From a virus, in IMG/VR virus record IMGVR_UViG_3300047548_000085, positions 1 to 56,858 of that record: a DNA stretch of 56,858 nucleotides. One strand, written 5' to 3'. The number at the start of each line of letters is the position of its first letter. The stretch's first letter is position 1. Shown piece by piece: positions 29,324 through 38,990 of this stretch. Position numbers and translations under genes: made by a program. The notes below the pieces were generated by a model. That model saw only the letters and a program-made list of their open reading frames with translations. It was not told the DNA's origin and did not search any database.

Positions 29324-29875
29324 TTAGGAGACTACTAACCCGTGTAGGGAGTCTAAAACTGTATCGTAGTCTTCATTCCAGGAGTATTGGAGGAAAACTC
29401 TAGTTTTATCATCCTTTTTGGTAACGCTATGAAGTTCGTTAATATTAAGCAGATATGCTTCTCCAGCCTTAGCCGACAATGAACACTCTATGTTTAAATC
29501 CTCAAAGTCGTATACATGGTAATCTTCTCTAACTATCCCGTCTTTTGGAGTGTAAAAAATGGTTTCGTCTTCAGATGTGTCAATGTAGTAGTTTAAAGAT
29601 ACCTTAGATTCGCCTCGATCACGATGAACGTCTAGCCACCCCTGTTTTTCAATCTGCCAAATTTGAATGGTGGTTGGAGGAATCTTAAAATTGTAATTTT
29701 GAATGTTGGCATAAAACCCTTCCATATCAGCGATTTCGAAAAATCTAAGCAAGGTATCACCCTTTAGTGGATCAGTATCTACACCAAATGTAAAGATGTT
29801 ATCTCCCCTGTAGTCTAAAATTTTACTAGGGTTTTTAACGAAACATGGTTTTATCTTACTGAAGTATTTGTTCAA
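29324..29875 (-). CDS. 2OG-Fe(II) dioxygenase-like protein
   Basis: 183 aa from a TTG start (29875) with GGAG 7 nt upstream inside the preceding gene; overlap 20 nt. The facial-triad motif is clear: H84-R-D86 (GWLDVHRDRGESKVSLNYYI), distal H149 (NINELHSVTKKDD) and R159 exactly ten residues later, the usual 2-oxoglutarate-binding position. Both halves of the double-stranded beta helix are present (KVSLNYYID, AYLLNINELHS). The family typically hydroxylates or otherwise oxidises amino acids, peptides or small molecules. It is last in a block of four radical SAM genes, suggesting it oxidises the same peptide or protein. Substrate unknown. Confidence 0.7.
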   Translation of the reverse strand: MNKYFSKIKPCFVKNPSKILDYRGDNIFTFGVDTDPLKGDTLLRFFEIADMEGFYANIQNYNFKIPPTTIQIWQIEKQGWLDVHRDRGESKVSLNYYIDTSEDETIFYTPKDGIVREDYHVYDFEDLNIECSLSAKAGEAYLLNINELHSVTKKDDKTRVFLQYSWNEDYDTVLDSLHGLVVS

Positions 29876-31157
29876 TTCCAGACTCCATCAACTCAACCTG
29901 TTCGCCGAATAGTAAAGATAACGAGTTTTGTTGAATAGCCGAATACCAAATCTTTTCGACTCTGCAATTGTGTAAGAAAACTTCGTTAGGGAAGTCGATA
30001 GGACAGCTAGACTTACACAATCTTTTAACGGGGCAGTGATAGCAGTGAGTGTTCTTTCTTTCAAGAGCCATTCCTACAATCTTAACACCCTTCAAATTAT
30101 TTATGTGACCACCTGTAAATTTTTCATTTGTATGTGGACATAATCTTACGCTACCACGGATGTCTAACGATAGAATATCCGCTGAATCTGCACCACATGA
30201 GGAAGTCATCGTTATAGGAATCTGATGACGAGTCAATGCAGCGTATTTAAGAATACCTGTGTCGTTATCTACAATGTTAGACTTTAGGAAACGATCTCCA
30301 CCTTCTTTCTTTTGGCGAATGCATGCTTTAAGATAAGCGTCTACATTTTCCTTAAACTTGGGTAGGAGGTCACCAGTGATAACGTGCTCAGCTGAGTTTT
30401 CCTCTCCACGTTCATCGTACACTCTCGCTGGAATGAATGACAACCTAGCGTCTTTCAATCCTAGACGATCTGCAACTTCTTTAAAGTAATCGTTGATTTC
30501 AAACAGATCGTAGTTAGTGGCTGAAACAACAGAGTTGAAACTAAACTGAACTTTTGGAGCGAGTTCGGCTAGTTGTTTGATAGATGACACTACGCTTTCT
30601 TTATTGAAGATGTCTTCGCCACGAAGTCGTTCATGTCCTGGACCATCGTGTGAAATACCCATCATCACAGATGCCTGTAAAGTCTTAAAGAAGTCTACAT
30701 GCTTTTGACGTAGTGGTGAGCCATTAGTTGAGATGTAGAAGTGACGACCTGGAGCATCAAGAAACTTCATAATTGGAACCATATCATTCCAGTAAAGGAA
30801 TGGCTCGCCACCCCACAACTCAATGCGTTCTAGTTGTTCTAAATCTAAGTGAGTTTTAACTGACTCAATGAATGACTCTAACCAGAAGTTCTCTGGTCGT
30901 TCGTTTGGGTTACCGATGTCTTTTTGCATACAGTAACCACATGAGTAGTTACAAGCATGACCCAGTAGGATGCGTAAAGCGACTGGTTTATTGTTCTTAT
31001 GAGTTACACCGAAAAGACCCTTGTCTTCGAAATACTCCCAACCTTCTTTTGGTGGAAGTGATAGCATCTCACCTTGCTCGCTGTGGATGCTATTATCAGT
31101 GTTGTCGTAGTAGAAAATACGACCAGAATCTTTTAGTTTAAATTTTGAAAAACTCAT
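29856..31157 (-). CDS. radical SAM/SPASM protein D
   Basis: 433 aa. The radical SAM cluster-binding motif CxxxCxxC is C69, C73, C76 (GHACNYSCGYCMQ), followed by the GGEP motif at 116-119 (ELWGGEP). The C-terminal part is a SPASM/twitch type region with Cys in SCGADSADILSL, SVRLCPHTNE, THCYHCPVKRLCKSSCP and HNCRVEKIW, enough for auxiliary Fe-S clusters. An N-terminal ~60-aa segment precedes the barrel and could be a peptide-recognition part (not identified as an RRE). Such enzymes form thioethers, C-C or C-O links, or epimers in peptides. Its start overlaps the end of protein C (ATGA) and its end the oxygenase gene. Confidence 0.9.
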   Translation of the reverse strand: MSFSKFKLKDSGRIFYYDNTDNSIHSEQGEMLSLPPKEGWEYFEDKGLFGVTHKNNKPVALRILLGHACNYSCGYCMQKDIGNPNERPENFWLESFIESVKTHLDLEQLERIELWGGEPFLYWNDMVPIMKFLDAPGRHFYISTNGSPLRQKHVDFFKTLQASVMMGISHDGPGHERLRGEDIFNKESVVSSIKQLAELAPKVQFSFNSVVSATNYDLFEINDYFKEVADRLGLKDARLSFIPARVYDERGEENSAEHVITGDLLPKFKENVDAYLKACIRQKKEGGDRFLKSNIVDNDTGILKYAALTRHQIPITMTSSCGADSADILSLDIRGSVRLCPHTNEKFTGGHINNLKGVKIVGMALERKNTHCYHCPVKRLCKSSCPIDFPNEVFLHNCRVEKIWYSAIQQNSLSLLFGEQVELMESGIEQILQ

Positions 31158-32224
31158 AATTTCGTCACAAAACTTTTGATGGGTGTTCCGTCTAACTTAA
31201 CGAACCCATGTTTAGTTTTTGTCCATCCTCTTTGTTGTAATTTATCACAGTAGCGACTATAAGGAACCATCATCATTGAAGGTATAAAATTATAGTCATC
31301 GTTAAAGGTGTAGTTCAAAGTCTTTGTAAAGTATTCTTTAAACTTAGGATTGGTAGTCCTATCTTTCCACTTGTCATACAAAATTTGTTTACCACGAGCC
31401 AATGAAATTAAGAACTTTTCTGGCTCGAACTCTCTATTTAGAATGTAGTAGGGTTCGATGCTAGGATCGGATGCAACGTCATTGGAGAAGTAAAACCTAT
31501 CAAAGAATAGACAGATGGCTTCATCTCCATAGACCTGCATATTACCTTCGGTATCTACGTCAATCCATGTCACCTGCTGGTCAACCCAGTCTTCAGTTAG
31601 CAACTCTCGCTCACCAGCCAAGAAGTTGTAGTGAAACATCGTCTCAATGTTTTCTTTCTTAGCCCACTCATAATATTCACGCAAGGCATTGATGTTACCA
31701 CAGTCGATTAACTTCAACTGTAGGATAGGCGAAACCTCATGAATCTCTTGTAGCGATCTTTTTAACTTATCACCATTTACCTTTTCAACAAAGTAAGAAC
31801 TAAGGGAAATACTAGCGATCTCTTTGAAGTTGAGTTCCTTCGCCATACCTCTGTAACGGAAAATCTGATTGTCGGTCATTCCGTACTGAAAACGCTTTCC
31901 GTTACGCTTGAAGTAATCGTAGTGCTTTGGGTAGTTCAACTTTAAGAACATCATATCATCGTCTGTTCTTAGATACCCAAAGTAATCAAATACAGTTTCC
32001 CACTTTTCTTCAAGAGCATCATCAAAGTCGAAGTAATAATTACTAAGACCCTTCTTCATGTTCTTGAGGTTTTCTTGAATGTAGCAAACATGGCACCCAG
32101 CATCGCAAAAATAACGAGTGCTGATGCTAAAGTAAAGATCTCGCTTAACTGACTTGATACAATCCTGTAGGAGCCAGTGTTCGTCTAGATCCTTTGCTTC
32201 TTCAAAATGAGTCAAATAGTTCAT
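31154..32224 (-). CDS. divergent radical SAM protein C
   Basis: 356 aa. The CxxxCxxC motif is present at C40, C44, C47 (RYFCDAGCHVCYIQ), but no GGE motif follows and I see no SPASM cysteine group. The rest is rich in aromatic and acidic residues (DFDDALEEKWETVFDYFGYL, MMMVPYSRYCDKLQQRGWTK). A radical SAM core with a non-standard SAM-binding region is the best reading; it may partner one of its neighbours. It overlaps both flanking radical SAM genes by 4 nt (ATGA), which argues for stoichiometric production as part of a complex. Function unknown. Confidence 0.75.
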   Translation of the reverse strand: MNYLTHFEEAKDLDEHWLLQDCIKSVKRDLYFSISTRYFCDAGCHVCYIQENLKNMKKGLSNYYFDFDDALEEKWETVFDYFGYLRTDDDMMFLKLNYPKHYDYFKRNGKRFQYGMTDNQIFRYRGMAKELNFKEIASISLSSYFVEKVNGDKLKRSLQEIHEVSPILQLKLIDCGNINALREYYEWAKKENIETMFHYNFLAGERELLTEDWVDQQVTWIDVDTEGNMQVYGDEAICLFFDRFYFSNDVASDPSIEPYYILNREFEPEKFLISLARGKQILYDKWKDRTTNPKFKEYFTKTLNYTFNDDYNFIPSMMMVPYSRYCDKLQQRGWTKTKHGFVKLDGTPIKSFVTKL

Positions 32225-33348
32225 TCGTTAATCTTAAAGTCTTCCTTAACACCAACCCATTCAAGCACAGACTTCTTCTCGTTTAGTTTGGCGTTATGCA
32301 TAATGGCATAATCCATGTAAGTATAGAACTCTTTACAACTACCGTTTGGTTGTTCATCAAATAATTTATAAAGATATTTCAACCCACAACTTGGTCGCTT
32401 CTCGCAAGACGAACAAGAATCGTGGATACGTCCAGCGTCACCTTGATTGCGCCAGAGTTGTTTATTCTTCCAGTCGCCAATACGAGCGTTTTCTGTTTTG
32501 TATTCTAGGAAGTCAAACTCTGGATAAATGTATCCGTCTGGGGAGAGAATGAGTTTGTTGTGTTCACCGAAGTATGCTTTATCAACGTCAGTGTAGCAAC
32601 CATCAATAAACACAGTCAGTTTCTTAACATAAAGAATCTGAATGAATTGAAGGAATGCATCTAAGAATTGTGGTAGGTGGATTCTATCAAGGATAACATC
32701 AAACTTATGTTTTCCTCGTTTGTGTCGTAGGGGAATAATGTTGATAACACGGCAACCAGACTTGTAGCAAGTCGCCACAATTTCTTTGATGTTATCAAAT
32801 GAGAATGACTTTGGGTCATCAATCGGAAGGACGAACTGCCACTGCCAAGAATCGCAAGTTCGGTTTAAAATCTGAGCCATCTCCATGACATCAAACTCAC
32901 TACGATTCTGCCCTTGATACATGAAGTCGTAGCTGACTGTGGCATAAAGGACATCTTTGTACTTGTCAAAGAACCACTCGCATTCCTTAACCAACGAACC
33001 ATTGGTAGTCATAGTGACTTTCCATCCGTTACGTTTAGCCATAGGGTAAAGCCATTCCATAACCTGTTCCATTCGTTTAATGAACAGAAGAGGTTCGCCA
33101 CCATGGAATGACACTCGTTCGATTACGTTTGGTTGAGTTTCAACCCACTCCAAAAACTCCTTCATTTCTAAAAGAGTCTTTGTGTTTAGGTTTTGTCCAC
33201 CAAGCGATTCAATGTAACCTCTATCACAGTAAACACAGTCGAAGTTGCAAGTGTTACCAAGATAAAGAACTACAAGTTTAATTTTGGATAGATCGTTATT
33301 GACTATGCGAACTGGATTCAACAAGTCTTTCACTGAATGTTCCTTCAT
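32221..33348 (-). CDS. radical SAM/SPASM-like protein B
   Basis: 375 aa. C34, C38, C41 (NTCNFDCVYCDRG) form the CxxxCxxC site, with GGEP at 83-86 (VSFHGGEPLLF). C-terminal cysteines in DSCSSCEKRPSCGLKYLYKL and SCKEFYTYMDY fit a SPASM-type auxiliary cluster. The frame opens at ATG 33348, 53 nt inside protein A; a GTG five codons later (33333) has a better-placed AAGGAA and could be the real start. The central region is basic and hydrophobic without other signature. Context implies peptide modification with A, C and D. Confidence 0.88.
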   Translation of the reverse strand: MKEHSVKDLLNPVRIVNNDLSKIKLVVLYLGNTCNFDCVYCDRGYIESLGGQNLNTKTLLEMKEFLEWVETQPNVIERVSFHGGEPLLFIKRMEQVMEWLYPMAKRNGWKVTMTTNGSLVKECEWFFDKYKDVLYATVSYDFMYQGQNRSEFDVMEMAQILNRTCDSWQWQFVLPIDDPKSFSFDNIKEIVATCYKSGCRVINIIPLRHKRGKHKFDVILDRIHLPQFLDAFLQFIQILYVKKLTVFIDGCYTDVDKAYFGEHNKLILSPDGYIYPEFDFLEYKTENARIGDWKNKQLWRNQGDAGRIHDSCSSCEKRPSCGLKYLYKLFDEQPNGSCKEFYTYMDYAIMHNAKLNEKKSVLEWVGVKEDFKINE

Positions 33349-35032
33349 AAGTCTTGTAAACAGACTGTAAAATAATCATGTGGAGCAATCCAAGATAGAA
33401 CGCTCGTTGGTGTGGGGTCTTTGCTTCAATCTTTTTATTGGTTGGAGCCAGACTTCCTTTTTGTAGAACAAAGTAATAGAAGTCATCAATCTCAGTTAAT
33501 TCGTCAGTTATTGCAAGTTTTATTTGACTAGTGAAGTTTTCTGGGGTAAGATATACAGTGTTCCCGTTGATGAGTGATTTCCAAAGAGTTAACATCTGTC
33601 TGTAATCAATATCTTCTAATCCAGTATGAACCATCTCTAGTTTTGGATGGTAGTTGAAATAGAAGTAAAACAACAGATAACTAATACCCTTCGCAAACGA
33701 TCTCTGTTCTCCCTCTGTATCCAATGCAGAACAGATTGTCTCAAACTTCTTTCTAAACTGCTTCTTAGAAATATCTTCGTGTAAATCCAAATACAATTTT
33801 ACAATCTTCTGACACATATCGTCTGGTCGGAACATTCTCGTTCCAGTATCAAGATTACCAGCTGGACATTGGTAACATGCATTCTTTAGATCACAAGTTC
33901 TGCACTGTTCTTCTTCTTGGAACATCTTAGCGTATTCTGTTTGGAATGCTTTGTAACGATCAATGTAGATTGCATTGTCGTAGATGTTACCAAGAATCGC
34001 TACCTCACCAGCACCAGCCTTTTGGTTAGTGAAGAAGTAGCAACCAGAGAAGTCACCAGAAGCGTCAATGGCAATCATGTCAGAACCAATCATGCAGTTC
34101 TCTTCGCCTTTTTGACCAACACCTTCTGAGAAGTGAATCTGAAGATCGTTATACTTATCTAGAACGAATAGGATATCTTTATGGAGTTTGTCCCATTCAT
34201 CATCGCTCCAACGAATAAATCCCTTGCTTGAATCAAGAACTAGCGGATGAACCACCATACGACGAATACCACGTTGGTATAGATTATCAACAAAGTTTGT
34301 GAAATATGGAGCATTCTCTCTTGCAAGAGTACAACGGATGGTCACACGCTTCTGTTGTTTGGCATCTTCATTGATGTACTGAATCATCTCCATAAGTTTG
34401 TCAATTTTATCTTGACCAATCTCACGATGATCAACTTCTGCTCTATCTGTATCTAATGAGATGAGCATGTAAGTGAAGTCGTATGTGAACCACTCATCAA
34501 CTAAAGACTCAGTTAGAAGAAGACCATTGGTTACCATACCGATGACAGTATTAGTATCTCCACGTGAGTGTAGTTGAATTTCCTCTTTGTTTTTATGAAC
34601 AAAGTCTAGGATAATGTCTTTGTGGATTAGTGGTTCGCCACCGAAGAAGTTAAAGATTTTCTTCTGGCGTTTATTGGAGTTCATCAGAAAACGATATGCC
34701 TTTAGAAGACTCTCGCTAGTGAAACGTCCAAAATCTTTATTATGCTGTTCGTAACAATAGGTGCAAGAAAGGTTGCACGCATTTGTCAGAATGAGGTTCA
34801 TCTGTTTCAATTCTTCGAAAAGATATGGAACAGATTCCATCGGAACGATGGTTTCTTCTGGTTTAGGTACGACTGAAACTAACTTGTTAGTTTTAGAAAG
34901 ACCTTTTGGAGTGATAATTTCTTCACTCTTAAAACGCAATGAACCATCCTCAGATAGTTCAACTGTTGCAGAGTGTTGCGCTTTACGTTCTGCTAATTGT
35001 TCTTTAGTTAACCAAATAACTGGTTGTGACAT
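33296..35032 (-). CDS. radical SAM/SPASM protein A, with C-terminal extension
   Basis: 578 aa, the largest of the four. C86, C90, C93 (TNACNLSCTYCYEQ), GGEP at 131-134 (NFFGGEPLIHKD), and a full SPASM set: C313, C331, C377, C380, C386, C389, C407 (QCRTCDLKNACYQCPAGNLD...DDMCQKI). This is the architecture of anaerobic sulfatase-maturase-like and RiPP-maturing enzymes. About 85 residues precede the barrel and ~160 follow SPASM (SKKQFRKKFETICSALD, TYEGTFSERLVESSS); neither resembles a known domain. It starts 14 nt after the Cys-rich peptide gene with GAGG before the ATG, the usual position of the main maturase next to its precursor. Confidence 0.92.
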   Translation of the reverse strand: MSQPVIWLTKEQLAERKAQHSATVELSEDGSLRFKSEEIITPKGLSKTNKLVSVVPKPEETIVPMESVPYLFEELKQMNLILTNACNLSCTYCYEQHNKDFGRFTSESLLKAYRFLMNSNKRQKKIFNFFGGEPLIHKDIILDFVHKNKEEIQLHSRGDTNTVIGMVTNGLLLTESLVDEWFTYDFTYMLISLDTDRAEVDHREIGQDKIDKLMEMIQYINEDAKQQKRVTIRCTLARENAPYFTNFVDNLYQRGIRRMVVHPLVLDSSKGFIRWSDDEWDKLHKDILFVLDKYNDLQIHFSEGVGQKGEENCMIGSDMIAIDASGDFSGCYFFTNQKAGAGEVAILGNIYDNAIYIDRYKAFQTEYAKMFQEEEQCRTCDLKNACYQCPAGNLDTGTRMFRPDDMCQKIVKLYLDLHEDISKKQFRKKFETICSALDTEGEQRSFAKGISYLLFYFYFNYHPKLEMVHTGLEDIDYRQMLTLWKSLINGNTVYLTPENFTSQIKLAITDELTEIDDFYYFVLQKGSLAPTNKKIEAKTPHQRAFYLGLLHMIILQSVYKTYEGTFSERLVESSSHSQ

Positions 35033-35046
35033 AACGAATCCTCATT

Positions 35047-35250
35047 TTATAGTGTTCCACGCCCACAAGCGCAAGCGCATTGACATTCACAAACAGTTGT
35101 GTAGTCGTCGTAAAAGATATGATTATGTGATGCTAGTTGTTCTAAAACATCTAACATCTGGCGGTAAGTGTCCGCAGTAATATTGTCTCCGCTATTTTTA
35201 GCAGGAACATCTGAATTAACTGACGTAGTTGATGTGTTTTCTACACCCAT
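35047..35250 (-). CDS. Cys-rich putative precursor peptide (67 aa) with CxCxCxCxC tail
   Basis: 67 aa. Three parts are visible. Residues 1-24 are Ser/Thr/Asn-rich and probably disordered (MGVENTSTTSVNSDVPAKN). Then comes a helix plus HxH...DD segment (ITADTYRQMLDVLEQLASHN then HIFYDDYTT). The tail is VCECQCACACGRGTL, with five cysteines at every second residue. The middle part resembles the repeated ASrhNELRDAINQIRSHYHT-VDD motif of the protein at 36972-37358. The gene lies immediately upstream of four radical SAM genes. A strong AGGAG precedes the ATG, and the gaps are 8 nt and 14 nt. I infer it is a substrate of those enzymes (RiPP-like leader plus core) or a Cys-rich metal-binding tail-tip peptide. 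No GG-type leader cleavage site is seen. Confidence 0.8.
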   Translation of the reverse strand: MGVENTSTTSVNSDVPAKNSGDNITADTYRQMLDVLEQLASHNHIFYDDYTTVCECQCACACGRGTL

Positions 35251-35258
35251 GATTTCTC

Positions 35259-36167
35259 CTATTCGATAACATCAACGATGTACTCTCGGAAGAATCGGTT
35301 TTTACTTGCAGTAAAAGCCATGTCCATAGTAGTACCAGTATTCCAACGGATGCTGATGTATCCTCGTTGTTTATTTAGGGTATTGACTATTACCTTATTT
35401 CCGTCCATGGTGTAGTCAAAGTTCGTGTCAACCTTAATCTTGGCGTCTTTGAAGAACTCTGGGAAGTGGTGATTCACAAACCAAGTCTTAAATGGCTCTA
35501 GTGTAAACTCAGTTCCACGAACCATAATGCTATTTTCGCCAATGATTCTAGCGTTTTTGCTAACACGAGGTTTAAAGATGATTTCGTTTAAATTCTTAAG
35601 ATGATTCGCCACTGTGTATACATGGTTCTGCCCATACTTGGCTTCAATGTTTTCAACACACTGAACTGAATGTGGGTTTAGAACGATGTAGTAAAGCGGA
35701 AGGTCTTTGGCTTTGTAACAGAACATCCAAGGAATCATTTTTGGATTTTCAATTTCTTCACCAGATACCAAATCAACAATGGTGTTACCTAACCTGTGAT
35801 ACCAAGAAGTTTTAGAAATAACATCTTTCTGTTCAATTCCACCTGTTGGTAAAATAGCACCCATCATTGCAATGTTATCTGAAGTCTTGTCCATAATTTC
35901 TGCGATTGTGTCAAAATTTAATGGGACTTCAGTTTCTGGGTCGTGTACACTGAATGGACGTTTTAAGATCAAATGATCTTCAGTGTAAACGGCTCCAGTG
36001 ATGGCGAACCTATTATCAACTTTTTGAAAGAATGAAATGTAGTTGGTGTAATCTTTGGCGTTGTTGCTATACCCAAGTCCTGGATTGATACCAACATTAG
36101 CCATGTTTAAAGAATCATCCCATGGATCTGGTTGACCCATAGCAGTTTGTAGTAAGAATACTCTCAT
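35259..36167 (-). CDS. unknown 302-aa protein in the maturation block
   Basis: 302 aa, not recognised. The N-terminal part (MRVFLLQTAMGQPDPWDDSL, NMANVGINPGLGYSNNAKDY) and the central VVSGEEIEN...MIPWMFCYKAKDLPLY look beta/alpha mixed. There is no Walker, radical SAM, Cys-cluster or membrane signature. Its ATG overlaps the diiron gene's stop by 4 nt (ATGA) and its end lies 8 nt from the Cys-rich peptide, so it is made with both. It could be a peptide-binding partner, scaffold or modifying enzyme of a new kind. I cannot say more. Confidence 0.7.
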   Translation of the reverse strand: MRVFLLQTAMGQPDPWDDSLNMANVGINPGLGYSNNAKDYTNYISFFQKVDNRFAITGAVYTEDHLILKRPFSVHDPETEVPLNFDTIAEIMDKTSDNIAMMGAILPTGGIEQKDVISKTSWYHRLGNTIVDLVSGEEIENPKMIPWMFCYKAKDLPLYYIVLNPHSVQCVENIEAKYGQNHVYTVANHLKNLNEIIFKPRVSKNARIIGENSIMVRGTEFTLEPFKTWFVNHHFPEFFKDAKIKVDTNFDYTMDGNKVIVNTLNKQRGYISIRWNTGTTMDMAFTASKNRFFREYIVDVIE

Positions 36168-36952
36168 AGTGTTTTTCTATACGCCTTCAAATCATTAACA
36201 GTTTCAAATTCTTTACCAACCAAGTTTGATGCAATTCTTAAGATTGTTGAGTGTAACCTTCTTTGGTCTTTCTCATTAAACTCTAAGATGTCATTTAGGA
36301 AGTGGTCGAATAACTCTGGGTTTGGTAACCTAGAATGTACCGACTTCTTATCTATGTCTAGAGTTGATGACGCTTTAATAGAAATGAAGAAACGCTTAGA
36401 TAAGAACAGTTGAAAAATAGTAAGGATAGCCTTTTCATGTTCTTTCTTGTAATACTTTTTCATAAAAGTCTTAAACGCTGCAGCATGATTGGCTTCGTCA
36501 AGGACTAGATTTTTATAGATGTTCTTGATTAGTGGTTCTTTATGCCAATCAGCCATCTTACGATACCAACGAATAACTGACAATTCAGTACACATATGAA
36601 GAGCCATCATTTCAGCAACTGACATAGGAGAATCGCTGAATGGAATAGCGACTTCTTCAAACTCTCTTATTGTTGCTTCGTTATCGGGAATAAAACGGCT
36701 GCAATATTCTTTTAGGATATATGCGTGTTTATGCTCATCGTGCACCCACTTGATGATGAATGAACGTAAGTCTAAGTCTTCTGGGATTTCGTTAAGCATA
36801 GAGATTGCTGCTGGTAGAGATGCATACTCAATAACGGTATTCATCTTCACAACCTCTGCATTAGTTTGGGATAGTTCAGTTTCCTGATAACTATCCCAAT
36901 TTATTTTAGATGCGTCAAACGATCTATTTTGGTAAATTTTTTGCGAAAACAT
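36164..36952 (-). CDS. ferritin-like diiron oxygenase-type protein
   Basis: 262 aa. The four-helix carboxylate-bridged diiron site is readable: E42 (NTVIEYASLP), E73 and H76 in the ExxH of KWVHDEHKHAYIL, E123 (MCTELSVIRWYRK), and E153 and H156 in LVLDEANHAAAF. This two-ExxH arrangement is that of the ribonucleotide reductase R2/ferritin-like oxidase family, including AurF-like and desaturase-like enzymes that oxidise amines or carbon chains. No ferritin storage-type pattern is seen. It is the first gene of the coupled maturation block and overlaps the 302-aa gene by 4 nt. The start has a weak ribosome binding site. Substrate unknown; oxidation of the neighbouring peptide is inferred. Confidence 0.72.
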   Translation of the reverse strand: MFSQKIYQNRSFDASKINWDSYQETELSQTNAEVVKMNTVIEYASLPAAISMLNEIPEDLDLRSFIIKWVHDEHKHAYILKEYCSRFIPDNEATIREFEEVAIPFSDSPMSVAEMMALHMCTELSVIRWYRKMADWHKEPLIKNIYKNLVLDEANHAAAFKTFMKKYYKKEHEKAILTIFQLFLSKRFFISIKASSTLDIDKKSVHSRLPNPELFDHFLNDILEFNEKDQRRLHSTILRIASNLVGKEFETVNDLKAYRKTL

Positions 36953-36971
36953 AATATATCACAATAAACCT

Positions 36972-37358
36972 TTATGATGTTCTATCGTCAACTGTGTGGT
37001 AGTGACTTCTAATTTGATTGATCGCATCTCTCAATTCATTGTGGCGAGATGCAGAAATTGCTGTGTTGGCTGTTGTATTAGTTGGTGCAGAAGTTGCAGC
37101 GTCTGGACCAGAAGTATTTACGTCACGATAGTAGTTGTTTCTATCGCCATTATTACCATATGTAGCCAACTGATAGGCATCGTCATATGTATGATAATGC
37201 CCATTCATATTATTGATAAGAGTAGCAATGCTATTTAAGTCGCTGGCACGTACTGTGTTTCCTGCCTGAATCGCATTTCTAAGTGTTGCTATTTCAGTAG
37301 CGATAGAACCACTACCAGTAAAAACTAATGCCTTTGCGCCACGCTCTGCGGTTGCCAT
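36972..37358 (-). CDS. HxH-DD repeat virion-type protein
   Basis: 128 aa with two copies of one unit: ASDLNSIATLINNMNGHYHT-YDD (near residues 39-62) and ASRHNELRDAINQIRSHYHT-VDD (near 102-125, C-terminus). Each is a short helix followed by HYHTxDD. HxH motifs in T4 fibres (gp12, gp37) coordinate metal at trimer axes, so this may be a metal-binding trimeric tip. A related unit occurs in the Cys-rich peptide at 35047-35250. Between the repeats is a low-complexity region (YRDVNTSGPDAATSAPTNTT). AGGAG lies before the ATG. It sits between a small unknown gene and the maturation block. Virion location and metal binding are inferred. Confidence 0.65.
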   Translation of the reverse strand: MATAERGAKALVFTGSGSIATEIATLRNAIQAGNTVRASDLNSIATLINNMNGHYHTYDDAYQLATYGNNGDRNNYYRDVNTSGPDAATSAPTNTTANTAISASRHNELRDAINQIRSHYHTVDDRTS

Positions 37359-37359
37359 G

Positions 37360-37734
37360 TTACACTCCTAGTACTTCGTTTGCCCAATCCGTGTCCCAAG
37401 AATCGCCAACTGCAACATAAACCTTTTCAGAATCAATATTTTTACTAATAAGATATTTAACAGTATCTGTGACTAAAGAAACTGCTTCACCTTCTTCCAA
37501 TAACTCTTTAATGTGACTAACTGCTTCTGGGTTAAAATCAAGTTTTAAGAATGACTCATAGACTTTATCCCAATCTGGATTTATTACTGCAAAACCACCA
37601 GGAATATCTGCAACTGCACTTTCTTTAACTGCAATGATAGTTTGTTCAACTGGCTCGTCAGAGTATTCAAAATTGAATAGTCCACTACCCTTAACAAACT
37701 CATAAAAGAAATGAAGGTGTTGCTCTGGAGTCAT
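37360..37734 (-). CDS. 124-aa acidic protein of unknown function
   Basis: Starts at ATG 37734, overlapping the fibre stop as TAATG; an earlier in-frame start at 37749 lies within the fibre gene and is unlikely. The protein (TPEQHLHFFYEFVKGSGLFN, FAVINPDWDKVYESFLKLDF, LVTDTVKYLISKNIDSEKVY) is acidic and mixed alpha/beta, with no known motif or Cys cluster. Position between fibre genes suggests an assembly or virion function, but none can be named. Confidence 0.6.
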   Translation of the reverse strand: MTPEQHLHFFYEFVKGSGLFNFEYSDEPVEQTIIAVKESAVADIPGGFAVINPDWDKVYESFLKLDFNPEAVSHIKELLEEGEAVSLVTDTVKYLISKNIDSEKVYVAVGDSWDTDWANEVLGV

Positions 37735-38990
37735 TATAGAATTACACACTCAACTAATTTTACACCAGCATCTTGATTGGTCTCAAGAGCGATGGCAAAT
37801 GAATTTTGATGGTCACTGTAGAATGCGCAACCTTCTTGATTGCTGATTAGTGGTTGACCCTTACGAATTGGACCAACTACTTTAACTGGAACACGACCAC
37901 GTAGGGCAATCGCTTGTCCTGGAGCCTCGTCATTCATTAAGAATGCTGGGTTTGTGGAAACAACACCAAGGACTCGTTGACCAGATAACCATGAGGCAGT
38001 TGCCTCAGACTTTTCGTCGTATGAAACAACCAGAACAGTTCCTGGTTCATATTCTTTATCAGTTGTATATTTTTCTGCCAAGTCGGCGTAGCGAGCAGAA
38101 GTAGCAGTACCGTAAATAACACCGAAACGATTGTCTGATTGACCAATATCACCACTACCATTAGTACCAGTTTTGATTAAAGATGGGGCAGATAATGCAG
38201 ATGTAGTCAATGAACTTAGAGTCATTGAAGCATTAGTTGCAATAGAAATTTGTGGGTTTCCAGCAACACCGTCACCGTTAGTAATAGAAAGACCATTACC
38301 ACCAACAGTTATTGTGCGTTCTGTGACACCAGCGTTACCTGTACGAACATAGAAGCCTGTAGCAGAAGTGGCAGAAGCAATAGCAGTTAGTTCATTAGAG
38401 AACGGCTGAATATCAGTACCAATACCAAGACCTAAGTTAGTTCTAGCCTGAACAGCAGTTGATGCACCAGTACCACCATCAACAATCGCTAAGTCAGTAA
38501 TACCAGTGATAGAACCACCAGTAATAGAAACTGCAGTGGAGTTTTGAGTTGCAAGAGAACCTAAACCTAAGTTTGTTCGAGCATTACCAGCAGTTGTAGC
38601 ACCAGTACCACCGTTACCGATAGCAACAATACCAGACACGTTAGTAGCATTACCAGTAACAGTACCAGTAAGATTTCCAGTTACGTTACCTGTTAGGTTT
38701 CCAGTAAATGAAGCAGTAATAACACCAGCAGAAAAGTTACCATTAGTTCTAGTAACAACAGTATTACCAGTCGTGTCTGTGCTAGATGAGGTTAAACCAT
38801 CTAGTAAGTCTGCATCAAGACCAGATCCAAGACCATCTACAGTTAGTAGTTTAGTTAGCACATCTGCTGCAGTGTAAGCAGATGCGTCTAATTTTTGACC
38901 AACCTCAGCATTAAGATTACTGAAATTAGCGTCTGCCTCTGCGATTGTAAGAGGAGATCCTTTAATAGATCTTAAAACGATCGTTGCCAT
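37734..38990 (-). CDS. tail fibre protein with C-terminal YADLAEKY domain
   Basis: 418 aa. The N-terminal LRSIKGSPLTIAEADANFSN is a fibre attachment motif. The shaft contains SLATQNSTAV-type and TGASTAVQARTNLGLGIGTD units almost identical to the 238-aa fibre. The C-terminal domain (TATSARYADLAEKYTTDKEY, EPGTVLVVSYDEKSEATASW, RGRVPVKVVGPIRKGQPLIS) is the widespread phage module in which AxLAEKY is followed by a beta domain with LSGQRVLGVVSTNPAF. The gene overlaps both neighbours by TAATG. A trimeric fibre or baseplate-linked appendage is most likely. Confidence 0.72.
   Translation of the reverse strand: MATIVLRSIKGSPLTIAEADANFSNLNAEVGQKLDASAYTAADVLTKLLTVDGLGSGLDADLLDGLTSSSTDTTGNTVVTRTNGNFSAGVITASFTGNLTGNVTGNLTGTVTGNATNVSGIVAIGNGGTGATTAGNARTNLGLGSLATQNSTAVSITGGSITGITDLAIVDGGTGASTAVQARTNLGLGIGTDIQPFSNELTAIASATSATGFYVRTGNAGVTERTITVGGNGLSITNGDGVAGNPQISIATNASMTLSSLTTSALSAPSLIKTGTNGSGDIGQSDNRFGVIYGTATSARYADLAEKYTTDKEYEPGTVLVVSYDEKSEATASWLSGQRVLGVVSTNPAFLMNDEAPGQAIALRGRVPVKVVGPIRKGQPLISNQEGCAFYSDHQNSFAIALETNQDAGVKLVECVIL

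What the first reader, a model, noticed from the sequence alone, without database searches (positions are those of the whole stretch)
35047..37358. The putative precursor shares its helix-HxH-DD unit with a neighbouring virion-type protein
The 128-aa protein has two units of the form A-S-x(3)-N-x(2)-[hydrophobic helix]-H-Y-H-T-x-D-D. The 67-aa peptide has T-A-D-T-Y-R-Q-M-L-x-V-L-E-Q-L-A-S-H-N-H followed by IFYDD, the same layout with one extra residue. So the 'leader' of the peptide appears to be a virion domain and the Cys-rich tail an added C-terminal extension. In T4, HxH pairs in gp12 and gp37 bind metal at the trimer axis. A trimer of the peptide would put six His and fifteen Cys at a fibre or spike tip.
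Basis: partly seen in the sequence, partly recalled or inferred. Interest (0 to 1): 0.85.

Follow-up and report, generated by a model that had tools for sequence, protein, structure and literature searches.

The report
Phage Cys-tailed peptide built on V128 unit
A small cysteine-tailed peptide, encoded beside four radical-SAM enzymes in many uncultured phages, shares a helix–His-x-His–Asp unit with a neighbouring phage protein that it always travels with, so the supposed leader of this peptide is a real protein domain, which suggests that phages chemically modify a small part of their own tail machinery.

Summary
The 67-aa peptide (PEP, 35047-35250, -) and the 128-aa protein (V128, 36972-37358, -) share a homologous unit of about 30 residues: G-x-x-I-x-A, an amphipathic helix, then H-x-H-x3-D. 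Profile-profile P is 3.6e-6 on the first alignments and 5.6e-8 on diverse ones, and no column shuffle (0 of 200) comes close. A PEP profile without its Cys tail, run on 1,041 background proteins, picks out V128 proteins and no other non-PEP protein (41 of 58 at E<=0.01), nearly always twice. The register is gapless, not 'one extra residue'. V128 is not a bystander: it is in 46 of 48 related phage contigs, and the two exceptions start or end inside the cluster. Its position changes between lineages, yet it stays with PEP, g302 and four radical-SAM genes. No relative was found in 84,980 prokaryotic genomes with the motif scan used. Ralstonia jumbo phages RP12/RP31 appear to carry the same cassette. 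PEP thus looks like a stand-alone copy of V128's last unit with a (Cx)3-5-RG tail, probably modified by the radical-SAM enzymes. A place in the virion is inferred from tail-gene context only. The metal-binding trimer is untested.

The parts
35047..35250 (-). PEP, 67-aa peptide: one helix-HxHxxxD unit plus (Cx)5-RG tail
35101..35193 (-). PEP residues 20-50: unit shared with V128 (SGDNITADTYRQMLDVLEQLASHNHIFYDDY)
   Evidence: hhalign; leader-only HMM
35050..35100 (-). PEP residues 51-67: Cys tail TTVCECQCACACGRGTL, absent from V128
   Evidence: alignment A1; 3-5 Cys across family
36972..37358 (-). V128, two-unit protein; AF2 model pLDDT 84, pTM 0.70
   Evidence: in 46/48 related contigs
37173..37265 (-). 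V128 N-terminal unit, residues 32-62 (HxHxxxD at 54-60)
36975..37076 (-). V128 C-terminal unit, residues 95-128 (HxHxxxD at 119-125); best match of PEP
35259..36167 (-). g302, conserved partner; its C-terminal part aligns with Ig-like domains
36164..36952 (-). Fer262, rubrerythrin/acyl-ACP-desaturase-like diiron protein; present in some clusters only
33296..35032 (-). rS578, radical SAM/SPASM enzyme, nearest the PapB/ScfB/CteB thioether maturases
32221..33348 (-). rS375, radical SAM enzyme with C-terminal Cys cluster
31154..32224 (-). g356, divergent radical SAM protein; CxxxCxxC invariant in 9/9, no Pfam match
29856..31157 (-). rS433, radical SAM/SPASM-like enzyme
37734..38990 (-). tail fibre protein upstream of V128 (context)

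Best explanation
PEP and V128 are paralogues at the level of one unit: PEP is a stand-alone copy of the kind of unit that ends V128, with a new (Cx)3-5-RG tail. Most likely PEP is made together with V128 and g302 as a small component of the tail fibre or baseplate tip. Its helix-HxHxxxD unit packs against the like units of V128 (a docking domain that stays on rather than a discarded leader), and its Cys tail is modified by the four radical-SAM enzymes, often with a DUF3050 haem-oxygenase-like oxidase, before assembly. Shown: homology of the unit, constant co-occurrence, conservation of the tail, the four radical-SAM genes, the tail-gene context in several lineages. Inferred: that the tail is the substrate (from co-conservation and the PapB/CteB relationship), that the unit mediates assembly, and that the product is in the virion.
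For: Homology. Co-occurrence: V128 in 46 and PEP in 46 of 48 rS578-bearing contigs once PEPs hidden by my ORF caller are counted; the two others start or end at rS578. Gene order varies while the set stays: V128 upstream in most, between g356 and rS433 in L078-L085, on the opposite strand with PEP in L070. V128 distances track rS578 distances over 26 non-redundant contigs (Mantel r=0.70, 0/999 permutations). Tail invariants: DD(Y/F)x(T/S)xCxC...RG with the first Cys at a fixed distance from the DD. rS578: PapB model E=2e-35 and CteB structure 5wgg E=2e-17. Context: baseplate wedge genes upstream in L088, tail fibre genes beside the cluster in the window, L069, L072, L075. V128 variants carry extra domains, including a Hint-like one in L080.
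Against: No virion proteome was available to check. In L070 the enzyme genes lie beside DNA-metabolism genes rather than tail genes. No modified PEP has ever been observed. V128 has no known fold relative except an uncharacterised RP12 protein, so 'virion' is not shown by homology. The unit could instead be what the maturases bind.
Confidence: 0.5

Rival explanations
1. The shared unit is the recognition element of the maturases. PEP and V128 are both bound by the radical-SAM enzymes through the helix-HxH unit; V128 is a scaffold or second substrate, and the modified tail is cut off as a small product (an ordinary RiPP, acting on the host or on competing phages).
For: Four radical-SAM genes next to a short Cys-rich peptide is RiPP-like. 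V128 lies inside the enzyme operon in L078-L085. V128 is co-conserved with the enzymes.
Against: I saw no peptidase, transporter or immunity gene in the cluster. The unit is a domain shared with V128, and V128 lacks the Cys tail in every member. Late-gene, tail-side location in several lineages.
Confidence: 0.27
2. PEP is a metal carrier: the CxCxCxCxC tail and HxHxxxD site bind Zn, Cu, Fe or an Fe-S cluster at a tail tip, and the radical-SAM enzymes modify something else or build a cofactor.
For: Alternating Cys and invariant His/His/Asp are good ligands. IscU/IscA-like genes (recognised by eye) lie nearby in L015 and L061. HxH pairs bind iron in T4 gp37 (PMC11705849).
Against: Cys number varies from 3 to 5. 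No similarity to gp37/gp12 found. Strict linkage of PEP to four radical-SAM genes is unneeded for plain metal binding.
Confidence: 0.15
3. Chance or convergent resemblance of two short helical segments with HxH and DD.
For: The single-sequence comparison is weak (E=0.067) and the unit is short.
Against: Profile P 5.6e-8, 0/200 shuffles, specific retrieval of V128 among 1,041 proteins, survival after masking the HxH/DD columns.
Confidence: 0.03

Closest known systems
PapA/PapB ranthipeptide system and CteB/ScfB (SCIFF) maturases
   Same: rS578 has a radical SAM plus SPASM core and matches the PapB model (E=2e-35) and the CteB structure 5wgg (E=2e-17); a short Cys-rich peptide is encoded next to it
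   Different: rS578 scores 122 bits against a PapB cut-off of 340; three further radical-SAM proteins; tail is (Cx)3-5-RG, not CX3D/E repeats; phage-encoded; the peptide's N-terminal part is a domain shared with a partner protein
T4 gp37/gp12 HxH iron-binding fibre tips
   Same: HxH pairs in phage proteins encoded among tail fibre genes
   Different: HxH here follows a helix and has an Asp at +4; no sequence or fold match found; no fibre repeat
Ralstonia phage RP12/RP31 ORF76-80 cassette (PMC5468394)
   Same: Isolated jumbo phages with adjacent radical SAM, Fe-S oxidoreductase, MoaA-like and MgoB-like genes; best fold matches of both V128 and g302 are RP12 proteins
   Different: Described in the paper only as separate homologues; the RP12 record is not in the collections, so the peptide there was not seen
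PHROG 31780 and PHROG 36229
   Same: V128 family members (17 of 18 tested) match phrog_31780; g356 matches phrog_36229
   Different: Both are of unknown function; no link between them is recorded in the library

Membership tests
V128 unit family (helix-HxHxxxD) | significant profile match of the unit | tested here: met
   P 3.6e-6 to 5.6e-8; 0/200 shuffles; leader-only HMM specific for V128
V128 unit family (helix-HxHxxxD) | HxH with invariant Asp at +4 | tested here: met
   22/22 PEPs, 58/58 V128s
Radical-SAM RiPP (ranthipeptide/sactipeptide type) | short precursor with Cys-rich C-terminal part beside a SPASM radical-SAM maturase | tested here: met
Radical-SAM RiPP (ranthipeptide/sactipeptide type) | maturase reaches the curated cut-off of a known RiPP maturase model | tested here: not met
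   best is PapB, 122.5 bits against a cut-off of 340
Radical-SAM RiPP (ranthipeptide/sactipeptide type) | CX3D/E motifs as in PapA | tested here: not met
   tail is (Cx)3-5-RG
Radical-SAM RiPP (ranthipeptide/sactipeptide type) | thioether or other radical-SAM modification of the peptide | not testable with these tools
   needs mass spectrometry
T4 gp37/gp12-type HxH metal fibre | sequence or fold similarity to gp37/gp12 | tested here: inconclusive
   not among PDB sequence or fold matches
T4 gp37/gp12-type HxH metal fibre | metal at a trimer axis | not testable with these tools
   no multimer modelling available
Virion structural protein | found in purified particles | not testable with these tools
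   a virion proteome of RP31 exists (PMC5468394) but its table could not be read

The most novel reading that the evidence does not exclude
A phage-borne 'virion RiPP': a structural micro-protein made by duplicating the last unit of a tail protein, adding a Cys tail, having it modified by four radical-SAM enzymes, and building it, with its domain still attached, into the tail of diverse T4-like and jumbo phages.
Probability: 0.4. Interest if true: 0.92.

Novelty: new variant of a known kind. Interest (0 to 1): 0.76.

Why it matters
It turns a vague resemblance into a defined, recurrent phage system: a peptide, a partner sharing its domain, g302 and four radical-SAM enzymes, seen in 26 or more non-redundant viral contigs and not found in 84,980 prokaryotic genomes. 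If the peptide is part of the tail, phages use radical chemistry to finish a virion component. I found no paper describing such a case in the searches made. RP31 offers an isolated phage with an existing virion proteome in which to test it.

Tried and rejected
Single-sequence BLASTP of the pair was inconclusive and replaced by profiles. tblastn of PEP in phage records gave only chance terminase hits (E>=0.1); V128 gave none. The PEP scan of bacterial and archaeal genomes found no relative, nor did the rS578 scan. I first thought L017, L020 and L045 carried V128 without PEP. L055, L061 and L067 show that a ketoacyl-synthase cassette can lie in the cluster, between V128 and g302-PEP in L055 and L061, so those contigs may just be cut short. 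PEP seemed missing in L064, L082, L085 and L087, but it is there in a frame hidden by my ORF caller. The VIA-align look at V128 against the PDB gave only Z<3; for g302 only generic Ig-like matches, Z 4-6. RP12 accessions AP017924 and NC_041911, and LC819005 of a related phage, are not in the collections. The 'one extra residue' layout was rejected: the invariant Asp shows a gapless register.

Full report
What is there. The window is a 56.9-kb IMG/VR virus fragment of T4-like late genes, nearly all on the - strand. Its portal protein is closest (56% identity) to Methylophilales, Pelagibacter and cyanobacterial myoviruses. Reading along the - strand, the stretch holds a tail fibre gene (37734-38990), a 129-aa ORF, V128 (36972-37358), a rubrerythrin/desaturase-like protein (36164-36952), g302 (35259-36167), PEP (35047-35250), rS578, rS375, g356 and rS433. 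Three of the last four match Radical_SAM. The fourth, g356, has no Pfam match, but CxxxCxxC is invariant in nine relatives, so I read it as a divergent fourth radical-SAM protein.

The resemblance. Alone, the two window proteins align weakly (E=0.067). With relatives it becomes clear. Sixteen PEPs against eighteen V128s give hhalign probability 87.5 and P=3.6e-6 to the second V128 unit and P=0.0012 to the first. Column shuffles reach at most score 20 against 35.6, and the reversed alignment gives 13. V128's own two units match each other at P=1.1e-7. With more diverse sets the PEP match rises to probability 94.7, P=5.6e-8, and P=8.5e-6 to the other unit. It stays at P=9.7e-5 with the His and Asp columns of PEP masked. 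Among 1,041 background proteins a PEP profile without the Cys tail finds, apart from PEPs, only V128 proteins at E<=0.01 (41 of 58), nearly always with two stretches each.

The register. The invariant positions say otherwise: H42-x-H44-x3-D48 in PEP, H54-x-H56-x3-D60 and H119-x-H121-x3-D125 in V128. The motif is in all 58 V128s, 43 of them twice, in all 22 PEPs, and in 7 other proteins. The match extends upstream of the helix (G-x-x-I-x-A), so PEP resembles the last unit of V128 with a tail added.

The tail. Across the family it is DD(Y/F)x(T/S)xC followed by alternating Cys, then RG near the C-terminus. There are five Cys in most members, four in L064 and L066, and three in L078 and L082-L085. 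The residues between the Cys vary (E, N, Q, D, A). V128 never has this tail.

The system. A scan with the rS578 alignment gave 48 contigs with clear relatives, 41-75% identical, on contigs up to 379 kb, and none in 84,980 prokaryotic genomes. That scan tests the two most conserved stretches only, so remote relatives could be missed. In these 48, V128 is present in 46 and PEP in 46 once hidden frames are counted; the two others start or end at rS578. Gene order differs: V128 first in most, between g356 and rS433 in L078-L085, and with PEP on the opposite strand in L070. V128 distances follow rS578 distances over 26 non-redundant contigs (r=0.70, 0/999), although shared descent of whole phages would give this too. 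V128 is therefore a cluster member, not a tail gene that happens to lie there. A DUF3050 oxidase is present in 27 of 48.

An isolate. The AlphaFold models of V128 (pLDDT 84) and g302 (pLDDT 77) each have one strong match in the viral library, and both are uncharacterised proteins of Ralstonia phage RP12 with neighbouring accessions (E=4.3e-8 and 3.6e-19). The RP12/RP31 paper lists radical SAM, Fe-S oxidoreductase, MoaA-like and MgoB-like ORFs 76, 77, 79 and 80 (PMC5468394), which fits the same order of gene kinds if MgoB is the DUF3050-type oxidase (own knowledge). I could not read that genome, so PEP there is a prediction. The paper reports 32 RP31 virion proteins, whose table I could not open.

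Mechanism. I think PEP is modified on its tail by the radical-SAM enzymes and joins V128 and g302 at the tail tip through the shared unit. The enzyme part rests on rS578's relation to PapB and CteB; PapB accepts Cys-Xn-Asp with n=0-6 (PMC9413430), but the PEP tail does not have the PapA motif and the type of bond is open. The virion part rests on gene context: baseplate wedge genes in L088 and tail fibre genes in the window, L069, L072 and L075. The main rival is that the unit is the enzymes' handle and the product is released. Metal binding is possible but has no direct support; the T4 gp37 analogy rests only on HxH.

Limits. Contigs are fragments from metagenomes. hhalign P-values are for single comparisons. 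Only monomers could be modelled. 'New' means not found in the collections and papers searched here.

Noticed in passing
L055:4824-9995, L061, L067, L020:8416-10678: A ketoacyl-synthase (FabF-like) gene with two small conserved ORFs, and in some a membrane desaturase or a MaoC-like ORF (the latter by eye only), lies inside or beside the cluster: an acyl-chain-making cassette in phages.
   Followed up: partly
L072:14662-16512 (-), L078:6098-8149, L070:16382-18274 (-): A B12-binding radical-SAM protein lies beside the cluster in three lineages, a possible fifth radical-SAM enzyme.
   Followed up: partly
L003:5798-7066 (-), L047:4981-7102 (-): The slot held by the ferritin-like gene in the window holds a class-III aminotransferase in L003-type contigs, and an Asp/Asn hydroxylase plus two membrane desaturases in L047.
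   Followed up: partly
L015:14536-15617, L061:16769-18795: IscU/IscA-like Fe-S assembly genes (recognised by eye) lie close to the radical-SAM cluster.
   Followed up: no
L080:7491-8849; L092:7876-8760; L098:12934-13800: Long V128 variants: a Hint-like C-terminal domain in L080, an extra C-terminal region in L092, an extra N-terminal region in L098.
   Followed up: partly
L098:6478-13800 (contig of 543 kb): Five radical-SAM genes of the rS433 and rS578 kinds in a row followed by a V128-like protein; a remote version of the system.
   Followed up: no
L064:6510-9879: Three g302 copies around V128 and PEP, suggesting expansion of a structural or binding partner.
   Followed up: no
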